In this document: piece by piece, positions 13,169 through 23,286 of the stretch
How the letters are laid out: every line of letters starts with the position of its first letter
Position numbering within the stretch: the first letter of the stretch is position 1
DNA from: a virus
Reading direction: 5' to 3' (one strand)
IMG/VR virus record: IMGVR_UViG_3300005613_000376
Span: 1-25,630 of that record
DNA: 25,630 bases
Notes under the pieces: model-generated
What the model saw: only the letters and a program-made list of their open reading frames with translations
The model's database searches: none
Told to the model about the DNA's origin: nothing
Program-made: the position numbers and the translations under genes

Positions 13169-13624
13169 TTAGTATGTATGTAAGACATCCTCTGGATTGT
13201 CTACGGTTGCAATGATTTCATCATCGTTTAGAATACGCACTTCACCGCCTTCAATTTTGAAACGGCTACCAGCATATCTTCCAAAAATAATCCAGTCGTT
13301 AGTTTTACACCATGGACCACTTGGAAATTTTTCTTTATCCTTGTAACAAAGGTCACCTTGTTTCAAAACTAAACCTACTACGGTTGTCATTTGAATTCTT
13401 TCCTGTGTTACATCTGAATAAATAATTCCGCCCTTTGTTTTTTGGGGACCAGAATAAGGTAGTACTAACATTCTCCAACCAGTTGGTTGAGGAAGTTTTT
13501 CTAATGCAGATTTGTCGATTGAGTTTTTGTCAAGATAAAGTTTTTCAACTTTTTCTTTTTCTTTGTACGCGTTTAACAATCCCTCTTTTTTTGAAGGGAT
13601 CTCGCTCGTTGCCGAGTTAGTCAT
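13169..13624 (-). CDS. GroES-like co-chaperonin (Cpn10 fold)
   Basis: 151 residues. After a 45-residue Lys/Glu-rich N-terminal extension, residues 47-147 follow the GroES order: 'PTGWRMLVLPY', a mobile-loop region 'KTKGGIIYSDVTQER' with the hydrophobic tripeptide after Gly-Gly, 'TTVVGLVLKQGD', 'KTNDWIIFGRYAGSRFKI', and 'VRILNDDEIIATVDNPED'. Host GroES caps GroEL; phage versions such as T4 gp31 replace it so that the large capsid protein can fold. It stands directly upstream of scaffold and capsid genes, which fits that role. The N-terminal extension and Cys92/Cys106 are unusual for the family. The fold call is confident; the capsid client is inferred. Confidence 0.8.
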   Translation of the reverse strand: MTNSATSEIPSKKEGLLNAYKEKEKVEKLYLDKNSIDKSALEKLPQPTGWRMLVLPYSGPQKTKGGIIYSDVTQERIQMTTVVGLVLKQGDLCYKDKEKFPSGPWCKTNDWIIFGRYAGSRFKIEGGEVRILNDDEIIATVDNPEDVLHTY

Positions 13625-13625
13625 A

Positions 13626-13808
13626 TTATAGCTCCTGTTTTTTTAGCAGGTCCCGAAGGTCCTGAAGCAGATCATTTATTGATCTGATTTGTCCTATTAT
13701 ATATTGATATTGATCCCATGTGTCAACACCAAAAATAACTTTAGATTCTAGAAGTTCTTTTTTCTCTTTTAACTTCTTTTCAATGTATTTAACTGTATCT
13801 ATGTCCAT
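13626..13808 (-). CDS. 60-residue coiled-coil protein
   Basis: MDIDTVKYIEKKLKEKKELL, then 'KVIFGVDTWDQYQYIIGQIR' and a helical end. Two charged helices around a short hydrophobic aromatic centre suggest a helical hairpin or dimer. Its end codons (CAG GAG CTA TAA) also form the ribosome site AGGAGCTATAATATG of the co-chaperonin gene, so the two are coupled. The start shares a base with the stop of the membrane-protein gene (TAATG at 13808). Similar short proteins occur beside phage head genes; function unknown. Confidence 0.7.
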   Translation of the reverse strand: MDIDTVKYIEKKLKEKKELLESKVIFGVDTWDQYQYIIGQIRSINDLLQDLRDLLKKQEL

Positions 13809-20805: not shown

Positions 20806-21195
20806 GATTTCAGCCTCGAATGAACAAACGTCGTTTTCCTCGACACATTTTTTGATTTTTTCTCCAAGGTCAAGTCGAGCATACCAACCTAACATGTTCC
20901 GAACATTTCTTTCAGTTCCTAACATAATGTTGTGTTTGTCCTCAAAATACTTACACATCATTTGATGGTTCCAACCCATATTTTCTTCAAAAAATGTATC
21001 AAGTATTTTTTTATGTTCTCCTAATGCTTTTTTACATTTGGAGATACCTTTTTTGATGTCCTCTAGATTATCCTTATCAAAAGTATAATGTAAATAATCC
21101 GAGTGACCCTCGACGCCAAAAAAGTCAGCGTCATTGCTTGATTGAACAGCAAACATAAATTTGCCTTCAATGTCTCCACTATAGTATCGTCCCAT
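20803..21195 (-). CDS. Conserved hypothetical phage protein
   Basis: 130 residues from MGRYYSGDIEGKFMFAVQSS. This start is chosen because GGAGGATACAAA precedes it; a longer frame from 21237 runs into the promoter. 'SNDADFFGVEGHSDYLHYTF' and 'CKKALGEHKKILDTFFEENM' follow, ending 'CVEENDVCSFEAEI'. I recall 'MGRYYSGDIEGKFxFxVQSSxDADFFG' from marine phages, function unknown. The acidic, Cys- and aromatic-rich sequence suggests a compact soluble protein. It is expressed leftward from divergent promoter C and ends at the shared terminator. Confidence 0.7.
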   Translation of the reverse strand: MGRYYSGDIEGKFMFAVQSSNDADFFGVEGHSDYLHYTFDKDNLEDIKKGISKCKKALGEHKKILDTFFEENMGWNHQMMCKYFEDKHNIMLGTERNVRNMLGWYARLDLGEKIKKCVEENDVCSFEAEI

Positions 21196-21216
21196 TTTGT
21201 ATCCTCCTTTTTTTAG

Positions 21217-21247
21217 TTGACTATATCCCATGATCATATAAAGTCAA
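21217..21247. promoter_or_regulatory. Divergent promoter C with exact ATATCCCATGAT
   Basis: Inverted TTGACT (21217-21222) and AGTCAA (21242-21247) are 19 bases apart, the same spacing as promoter B. Leftward: TTGACT-16-TATAGT. Rightward: TTGACT-16-TAAAGT, or TATAAA at a spacing of 14. The exact 12-mer ATATCCCATGAT occupies 21223-21234. It drives 21195 leftward and 21282 rightward; both messages share the GGAGGATACA ribosome site. Confidence 0.65.
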
Positions 21248-21281
21248 TACATAACCATAAATAAAAATAGGAGGATACATT

Positions 21282-21638
21282 ATGGGATATACTAACTATT
21301 GGACTTATAAAAAGCCCTTTGATAATAACGAGTGGTCAAAAATAAAAGATGAATACGACTACATCGTTGAAAACTTTGATGGAACTATCATCAAAAACGA
21401 GACCCCAGTTAAACACAAAGATGAAGTAATTGTCTTTAATGGTGTAGGGGCAAACTCTCATGAAACATTTGTCTTGTTTAAAGATTTTACGAAGCGAGAC
21501 AGAAGTTATGAGGGGCAAGACTTAGGTTTTGATTTTTGCAAAACTAATCGAAAGCCCTATGATCTCGCCGTTTGGCATATGTTAACATTTGCTAAAAATG
21601 TTAATGATGATAAAATCGAAATAAGGAGGGATCGATAA
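21282..21638 (+). CDS. Conserved phage protein starting M-G-Y-T-x-Y-W
   Basis: 118 residues. 'MGYTNYWTYKKPFDNNEWSK' at the start, 'VIVFNGVGANSHETFVLFKD' in the middle and 'DLGFDFCKTNRKPYDLAVWH' near the end belong to a family I recall in many phages and some bacteria ('MGYTHYW...HExF...FDFCKTxRKPYD'). The invariant His-Glu, Phe-Cys-Lys-Thr and Pro-Tyr-Asp suggest a functional site, but no activity is known to me. GGAGGATACATT precedes the ATG. Its stop shares a base with the next start (TAATG). Confidence 0.75.
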   Translation: MGYTNYWTYKKPFDNNEWSKIKDEYDYIVENFDGTIIKNETPVKHKDEVIVFNGVGANSHETFVLFKDFTKRDRSYEGQDLGFDFCKTNRKPYDLAVWHMLTFAKNVNDDKIEIRRDR

Positions 21639-21889: not shown

Positions 21890-21922
21890 ATAAAAAAAAA
21901 GGGGGCGATTACTCGCCCCTTC
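21890..21922. terminator. Terminator between convergent genes
   Basis: GGGGCGA (21902-21908) pairs with TCGCCCC (21913-21919), loop TTAC. On the minus strand the stem is followed by a run of at least nine T, so it is a strong terminator for the gene 21944-22624. On the plus strand the tail TTCTTCCC is weaker but may also end the rightward operon. Confidence 0.8.
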
Positions 21923-22691: not shown

Positions 22692-22946
22692 TTATTGATA
22701 ATTAGGAACTGGTAACTCGTCAGGGCCAACCTGGTTTTCATAAACCCTGGCCTGAAGCTGCACGTCGTACCGGTCACTGTCCCGGTCAATTGCTGGCCTT
22801 AGCCTGGTGAGGGCTGCTTTGAGCTTTTCTTTAGTTTGAAAAGCGATCCTAATGTCCCGGTGTTTTGCACCAGCTGTGTAATACCAGCCTCCTTCTTCAT
22901 GGCCACCGAAAGCCCGGTAAGTTTGGTATATAGATATAAAATACAT
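22692..22946 (-). CDS. Small conserved protein with E-E-G-G-W motif
   Basis: 84 residues. 'YQTYRAFGGHEEGGWYYTAG' near the N-terminus matches a pattern I recall in phage and plasmid proteins ('YGGPEEGGWWY'), function unknown. The rest, 'IRIAFQTKEKLKAALTRLRP' and 'SDRYDVQLQARVYENQVGP', is helix then strand. G+C is clearly higher than in its neighbours (35 of 60 bases at 22741-22800), and it uses CGG/CTG/GCC codons seldom seen nearby, suggesting recent transfer. GGAAGGAAATATG precedes the start, beyond a long structured leader. Confidence 0.65.
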   Translation of the reverse strand: MYFISIYQTYRAFGGHEEGGWYYTAGAKHRDIRIAFQTKEKLKAALTRLRPAIDRDSDRYDVQLQARVYENQVGPDELPVPNYQ

Positions 22947-22972
22947 ATTTCCTTCCTTTCTAAACTAGTGAC

Positions 22973-23195
22973 CCCGACCCAGGCTACCGGGTCGGGATCG
23001 ATTAGTATGGGTCCTTACACCACTTTACTAATTTTACTCCTGGGGTGTCCCGGCTCAAGGCTACGACTAGACCAGAAGCACGGCCGGGTCATTGCCTATA
23101 GGGTAACCCGGCCTTCGACCAGTAAAAATTGTCTGTGTTAACTTTTTACGGGTCGAAGGCATCGACGGTTAACTCGGTCAAAAGTCGACCGTCGA
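22973..23195 (-). ncRNA. Candidate structured RNA or leader with four stem-loops
   Basis: The 348-base gap between genes holds four perfect inverted repeats: 22973-22980 with 22989-22996 (8 bp); 23082-23089 with 23106-23113 (8 bp, GGCCGGGT/ACCCGGCC); 23111-23120 with 23151-23160 (10 bp), continued by 23122-23128 with 23143-23149 (7 bp); and 23162-23169 with 23188-23195 (8 bp). Stems 2 and 3 share three bases and so compete or stack. G+C reaches 36 of 60 bases at 23041-23100. Promoter E (23286-23259) points leftward into it, so it would be transcribed as a leader of about 300 bases before 22946 or as a separate RNA. The strand follows from that promoter. No convincing coding frame was found in it. 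I do not recognise a known RNA family. Confidence 0.5.
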
Positions 23196-23258
23196 CCCAT
23201 TCGTAGTCGATCAAAAACAGGAGCTATAAAAAAGTTTTAAATCGAACTACCAATTATC

Positions 23259-23286
23259 CTTTTATCATCATGGGAGATAGTGTCAA
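23259..23286 (-). promoter_or_regulatory. Promoter E with element in its spacer
   Basis: Minus strand TTGACA (23286-23281), 16 bases, TAAAAG (23264-23259). The spacer contains ATCTCCCATGAT, 11/12 identical to the shared element and in opposite orientation to that in promoter A. It lies just beyond the nuclease stop codon (23295) and would start a transcript running through the stem-loop region toward 22946. Confidence 0.55.

What the first reader, a model, noticed from the sequence alone, without database searches (positions are those of the whole stretch)
22973..23195. GC-rich chain of perfect stem-loops in a 348-base gap, downstream of a promoter
Four inverted repeats of 8-10 bp (one extended to 17 bp with a single mismatch) follow each other, two of them sharing three bases. 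Local G+C is about 60 percent in an AT-rich genome. No convincing coding frame fits. Promoter E points into the region. It may be a riboregulator, a structured 5' leader of the 22692-22946 gene, an anti-host RNA, or a replication or packaging structure.
Basis: partly seen in the sequence, partly recalled or inferred. Interest (0 to 1): 0.7.

Follow-up and report, generated by a model that had tools for sequence, protein, structure and literature searches.

The report
Phage antisense RNA with hairpin chain
The hairpin chain belongs to an RNA of a marine phage whose first hairpin carries a loop that matches, letter for letter, the ribosome-binding site of the phage's own chaperone gene, so it probably switches that gene down.

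Summary
The hairpins are real (three perfect repeats of 8 bp or more; 0 of 500 shuffles reach that), but the RNA lies on the minus strand: a promoter at 23286-23259 precedes seven abutting stem-loops (23251-22970), then ORF84. G+C is 53%, not 60%. The first stem-loop, H0 (23251-23200), is a conserved element absent from Rfam: I count 66 viral contigs (plus my own count), 35-37 nt behind TTGAC in 37 of 37 distinct leaders, downstream of the same nuclease gene. H0's loop is perfectly complementary over 17 nt to the Shine-Dalgarno region of the phage's GroES-like gene (13626-13642), 9.6 kb downstream. Loop and target change together across nine lineages (48 of 362,880 permutations pair as well), and the GroES site is the best sense-strand duplex in 5 of 6 sequences scanned, second in the sixth. 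I read H0 as a phage antisense RNA that hides this ribosome-binding site. Repression and the transcript are inferred. The rest of the chain gains, loses or swaps whole hairpins among close relatives; its function is unresolved. Counter-evidence: the target also encodes the end of the upstream protein and persists in two long contigs without detectable H0.

The parts
23259..23286 (-). promoter of the H0 RNA: -35 TTGACA, 16-nt spacer holding TCCCATGAT, -10 TAAAAG (weak)
   Evidence: coordinates; conserved in L061, L062, L069; distance from TTGAC to H0 is 35 (26), 36 (9) or 37 (2) nt in 37 distinct leaders
23200..23251 (-). H0, 5'-terminal stem-loop, the conserved element
   Evidence: fold z -3.4; model R1 hits; 97.6% of pair cells kept over 15 distinct sequences
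23213..23229 (-). antisense segment UUAUAGCUCCUGUUUUU in the loop and inner stem of H0
   Evidence: 17-nt perfect complement of the GroES-like start region (coordinates worked out); 0 of 300 shuffled H0 reach 17 anywhere in the window
23158..23198 (-). H1, second stem-loop, kept in L061, L062, L069 and the near relatives
   Evidence: fold z -4.2; alignment; presence table
23114..23157 (-). hairpin A, replaced by other hairpins in L057 and L060
   Evidence: z -4.2
23082..23113 (-). hairpin B, replaced together with A
   Evidence: z -4.2
23037..23078 (-). hairpin C; its stem changes in relatives keep pairing
   Evidence: fold no better than shuffles (z -0.9)
23002..23031 (-). hairpin D (weak)
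   Evidence: z -0.6
22970..22999 (-). hairpin E
   Evidence: z -5.1
22692..22946 (-). ORF84, first gene behind the chain (SD-like AAAGGAAGG 22951-22959), weak match to phrog_7302
21902..21919 (-). terminator-like hairpin behind the GP88-family gene; likely end of this transcription unit
13626..13642 (-). target site AAAAACAGGAGCUAUAA over the SD of the GroES-like gene, ending one base before its ATG
   Evidence: best minus-strand duplex with the H0 loop in the window, -24.7 against -19.9 for the next
13169..13624 (-). GroES-like gene, 151 aa (Pfam Cpn10; phrog_3188)

Best explanation
H0 is the 5'-terminal stem-loop of a phage RNA made from its own promoter. Its loop (AGCUCCUGUUU plus flanks) base-pairs with the Shine-Dalgarno region of the GroES-like co-chaperonin gene, about 7.5-12 kb downstream on the same strand, and so blocks ribosome binding and lowers or delays co-chaperonin synthesis. 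Shown by sequence: the element, its promoter, its place, the complementarity and the joint change of loop and target. Inferred: that the RNA is made and acts in trans, that the effect is repression, and the timing. In the window's clade the same transcript carries a chain of exchangeable hairpins and serves as the 5' leader of ORF84; the chain is probably a stabilising 3' body with little sequence demand (weak inference).
For: 17-nt perfect complement at the GroES-like start in the window; 0 of 300 dinucleotide-shuffled H0 have a complement of 17 anywhere in the window, the largest being 16. All 8 records that hold both H0 and the GroES-like gene have AACAGGAGCT at its start, as do L445 and L428; G027 has AACAGGAGCC and G028 AACAGGAGCA. 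Joint change of loop and target: window UAUAGCUCC/GGAGCUAUA, L445 AGUAGCUCC/GGAGCUACU, L428 UUAAGCUCC/GGAGCUUA, G027 UGGCUCC/GGAGCCA. L445, L428 and G028 have stems unlike H0 but the same loop core. Permutation of nine loop-target pairs: 48 of 362,880 reach the cognate energy sum; three flanking positions pair in 23 of 27 cells, mean 18.1 when permuted, p 0.007. GroES start is the best sense-strand site outside H0 in window, L464, L445, L423, L430 and second in L428. H0-negative HTVC023P, HTVC027P, 023Pt_psg01, DSL-LC04 lack AACAGGAGC there, 0 of 4.
Against: The target also encodes the end of the upstream ORF (KKQE), so it can be conserved for protein reasons: contigs G029 and G030 (60 and 54 kb) keep AAACAGGAGC at GroES although no convincing H0 was found in them; G026, G032, G034, G035 do too but end 9-10 kb upstream. 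The permutation test ignores relatedness, and two of the nine loops are identical in the stretch used. L062, L268 and G028 pair imperfectly in the flanks. In L428 another gene start scores better. L221-type phages have an 18-nt complement inside the polymerase gene that this account does not explain. No transcript data; no 3' end defined.
Confidence: 0.62

Rival explanations
1. H0 is a cis-acting nascent RNA that modifies RNA polymerase (as HK022 put does) so that it reads through the structured leader; the match to the GroES start is incidental.
For: H0 starts at about +1 behind the promoter in 37 of 37 distinct leaders; in the window clade a second stem-loop follows directly, like the two-stem putL (PMC9378689, passages).
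Against: No match of model R1 in HK022; no clear terminators between H0 and TerL in L217 and L274, counts near shuffles; H1 is absent from most H0 phages; does not explain loop-target joint change.
Confidence: 0.1
2. No interaction: H0's loop is conserved for another reason (protein binding) and the GroES start is conserved because it encodes the upstream protein's end and a good SD.
For: AAACAGGAGC persists at GroES in contigs without detectable H0; the 10-mer also occurs in unrelated coding sites.
Against: Bases outside the shared core pair in the cognate combination more than in swapped ones; H0-like hairpins with altered loops were found where GroES targets were altered.
Confidence: 0.15
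3. H0's CUCCU loop is a generic anti-Shine-Dalgarno that binds many mRNAs or ribosomes.
For: The loop holds CUCCU; 17 of 37 leaders hold AGGAGC downstream.
Against: No excess of GGAGC among SDs of H0-bearing marine loci: 40 C of 164, against 15 of 66 in H0-negative loci; complementarity of 12-18 nt at one gene.
Confidence: 0.06
4. H0 is a 5' hairpin that protects the mRNA from decay.
For: A stable stem at about +1 in 37 of 37 distinct leaders.
Against: An invariant loop is not needed for that; loop-target joint change.
Confidence: 0.07

Closest known systems
P22 sar RNA (antisense to ant mRNA)
   Same: A phage RNA that pairs with a phage mRNA and hinders translation initiation (PMC12197685, passages).
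   Different: sar is an antisense RNA of the ant region itself (recalled); H0 lies 7.5-12 kb from its target on the same strand and pairs through a short loop.
lambda OOP RNA (antisense to cII)
   Same: Phage RNA acting on a phage mRNA by pairing (PMC12197685, passages).
   Different: OOP overlaps its target; H0 does not.
lambda PreS
   Same: Phage small RNA that acts on an mRNA encoded elsewhere (PMC12197685, passages).
   Different: PreS acts on host dnaN with Hfq; H0's predicted target is a phage gene and Hfq was not tested.
HK022 putL RNA
   Same: Stem-loops at the very start of a phage transcript (PMC9378689, passages).
   Different: No match of model R1 in HK022; different predicted action.
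HTVC023P-type pelagiphages
   Same: Closest cultured relatives of the window phage (TerL 70%); GroES is among the core genes of that group (PMC9599517, passage).
   Different: HTVC023P, HTVC027P, 023Pt_psg01 and DSL-LC04 have no H0 (best E 0.7) and other SDs at GroES.

Membership tests
phage-encoded antisense small RNA acting on an mRNA elsewhere | own promoter at its start | tested here: met
   TTGAC 35-37 nt upstream of H0 in 37 of 37 distinct leaders; presence of TTGAC was a filter, the spacing was not
phage-encoded antisense small RNA acting on an mRNA elsewhere | complementarity to a translation start region | tested here: met
   17 nt in the window; 8 of 8 records with H0 and the gene have AACAGGAGCT there
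phage-encoded antisense small RNA acting on an mRNA elsewhere | loop and target change together | tested here: met
   48 of 362,880 permutations; flanks 23 of 27, p 0.007; relatedness not modelled
phage-encoded antisense small RNA acting on an mRNA elsewhere | discrete transcript with a 3' end | tested here: inconclusive
   no terminator-like site behind the hairpin chain before ORF84; one behind the GP88 gene
phage-encoded antisense small RNA acting on an mRNA elsewhere | effect on target expression | not testable with these tools
   needs an experiment
HK022 put RNA | two stem-loops directly behind the promoter | tested here: inconclusive
   H0 and H1 in the window clade; no H1 in most H0 phages
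HK022 put RNA | sequence or structure relation to put | tested here: not met
   model R1: no match in HK022 up to E 10
Rfam 15 families | score above gathering | tested here: not met
   window and 11 loci, 10 of them chosen from the hits plus L094: 0 matches

The most novel reading that the evidence does not exclude
A widespread RNA of uncultured relatives of HTVC023P-type pelagiphages controls the phage's own GroES-like co-chaperonin through a loop that co-evolves with the target's ribosome-binding site, while the stem and the rest of the RNA, in this clade a chain of exchangeable hairpins, are free to change: a phage riboregulator of capsid-protein folding or its timing.
Probability: 0.55. 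Interest if true: 0.78.

Novelty: new variant of a known kind. Interest (0 to 1): 0.7.

Why it matters
Few phage RNAs have a target that sequence evolution alone points to. If true, a co-chaperonin that is a core gene of an abundant marine phage group is regulated post-transcriptionally in its relatives, and loop-target pairs from several lineages make a ready test set. It also gives an RNA element without an Rfam entry and an example of a target found by asking what an invariant loop is complementary to.

Tried and rejected
Known RNA family: Rfam none above gathering; weak matches only. Generic anti-SD: base after GGAG in H0-bearing marine loci A47 C40 T39 G38 of 164, H0-negative loci A21 G18 C15 T12 of 66, window clade G35 C6 A6 T2 of 49; no preference for C. 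Put-like antitermination. Other hairpins of the chain as antisense: longest complements 9-12 nt, chance level in my judgement. Hairpin chain as a general trait of H0 phages: not so; sense z of 31 leaders averages -1.4 and is lowest in the window clade, and sense against antisense is not significant (p 0.07). H0 in bacterial genomes: 0. Window region or H0 in GenBank phages by DNA: none. Pattern hits L065, L066, L076 and several are coding sequence by my reading and were dropped by the promoter and GGTAG filters. The polymerase gene as a shared target: complement present in the 4 L221-type records with the gene, absent from the 8 other H0- or H0-like-bearing records with it.

Full report
Setting. 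The window is an IMG/VR virus record (G000) with terminase, portal, capsid, GP88-family and GroES-like genes. The nearest cultured phages by TerL are Pelagibacter phages HTVC023P (70%) and HTVC027P (65%). The host is not established.

Observation. The repeats are there and exceed chance. Folding favours the minus strand. G+C is 53%. On the minus strand seven stem-loops abut: H0 23251-23200, H1 23198-23158, A 23157-23114, B 23113-23082, C 23078-23037, D 23031-23002, E 22999-22970. Upstream is TTGACA-16-TAAAAG; downstream ORF84, then the GP88-family gene, which has a promoter-like site of its own, and a terminator-like hairpin.

Conserved part. In relatives the chain splits into a constant and a variable part. 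Promoter, H0 and H1 persist in L061, L062 and L069, where a gene follows H1 at once. A scan for TTAGCTCCTGTTT followed by CTACC gave 78 stretches; after removing coding hits, H0 stands behind a promoter in many phages. Counting contigs: 51 among loci L208 and later plus 15 earlier ones counted by me from the lists (window included), 66 in all. This count needs a TTGAC upstream by construction; the fixed spacing of 35-37 nt does not. Model R1 found no other H0 in 158 further loci (the window itself matched). A model built without the window clade and L061/L062 finds L062, L061 and L069 at E 2e-8 to 4e-6 and the window at only 0.11, right place and strand. Pair changes in H0 are few: one pair changes on both sides (C-G to U-A in 4 of 15 distinct sequences), several only through G-U.

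Place. H0 follows terS, a small ORF, a peptidase-like ORF and a nuclease-like gene, and precedes variable genes; in L217 and L274 TerL begins 2.1-2.2 kb further on the same strand. The nuclease motif was found upstream in 88 of 89 loci with enough sequence (repeats of one contig included); the exception, L208, shows the gene cut by the contig end. In 24 of 31 leaders a second promoter-like motif follows within 700 nt; the window is among the 7 without.

Variable part. A and B of the window are replaced by two other hairpins in L057 and in L060; L055 adds elements behind E; L060 lacks ORF84. L063 ends inside the chain and says nothing on C-E. In the shared hairpins, 5 of 7 changed pairs stay paired on the minus strand, 2 of them by G-U only, and none would be paired on the plus strand alone; the two lost ones are the same change in H0. 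No antisense target for H1 and A-E was found.

Target. The loop of H0 is invariant while the partner strand of its inner stem varies, which suggested an outside partner. In the window the complement occurs once besides H0, at the SD of the GroES-like gene, 17 nt long. AACAGGAGCT occurs besides H0 itself in 15 of 21 H0-bearing records, but only in part at GroES; other sites lie at other genes or in coding sequence. Eight of the 21 carry the GroES-like gene and 8 of 8 have the sequence at its start. Around other GroES-like genes I then found H0-like hairpins in L445, L428, G027 and G028, with loops altered in step with the targets. In G028 the hairpin is 8.6 kb upstream only if that record is circular. 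Duplex scan, permutation test and flanking pairs. In L445 and L430 the gene after GroES has a matching SD as well.

Against. Contigs G029 and G030 have AAACAGGAGC at GroES but no convincing H0; the target codes KKQE. Relatedness is not modelled. An 18-nt complement inside the polymerase gene of L221-type phages is unexplained. Nothing here shows a transcript.

Literature. Passages only: PMC12197685, PMC9378689, PMC9599517 (no mention of noncoding, intergenic, hairpin, promoter or small RNA in its main text). Searches gave no paper on such an RNA, judged from their listings. A role of phage co-chaperonins in capsid folding (T4 gp31) is recalled.

Noticed in passing
L208:625-700, L259:2641-2717, L265:5546-5622 and 11 more distinct sequences: A second conserved RNA-like element of 76-79 nt behind H0 in the L208 type of phages, closed by GGGGCRY/GYGCCCC with pair changes, with inner stems CACYG/CGGTG; 2 of 17 predicted pairs change on both sides.
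   Followed up: partly
window 19498, 21224, 23267, 24978: Motif TATCCCATG/CATGGGATA or its kin at or near promoters, in either orientation; also in the H0 promoters of relatives. Looks like a phage-wide operator.
   Followed up: partly
L365:177-190, L378, L379, L367: In L221-type phages 13-18 nt of a polymerase gene (name recalled) are complementary to the 3' side of H0; absent in other H0 lineages.
   Followed up: partly
L445:10459, L430:8023: The gene after the GroES-like gene also has an SD that matches the loop (AAACAGGAGCTACA/TATGG).
   Followed up: no
L079:3047-3371; L078:2090-2637; L222 near 13100: Strong hairpins with the stem base GATCCCTG or a close form in gaps of other phages (L079 gap z -9.4; sequences), like hairpins of L057 and L060; possibly a family of small mobile palindromes.
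   Followed up: no
L221, L217, L092 leaders: Repeats of the type TTCCCATTTCCCGTT behind H0 and in nearby ORF ends; the other strand is rich in GGG runs.
   Followed up: no
window 21190-21287: 29-nt inverted repeat (86%) around two divergent gene starts; a window there folds more strongly for its G+C than the hairpin chain.
   Followed up: no
L077:3614-3785: Three tandem copies of a 58-nt unit in the gap before the GP88-like gene of HTVC023P, where the window phage has H0.
   Followed up: no
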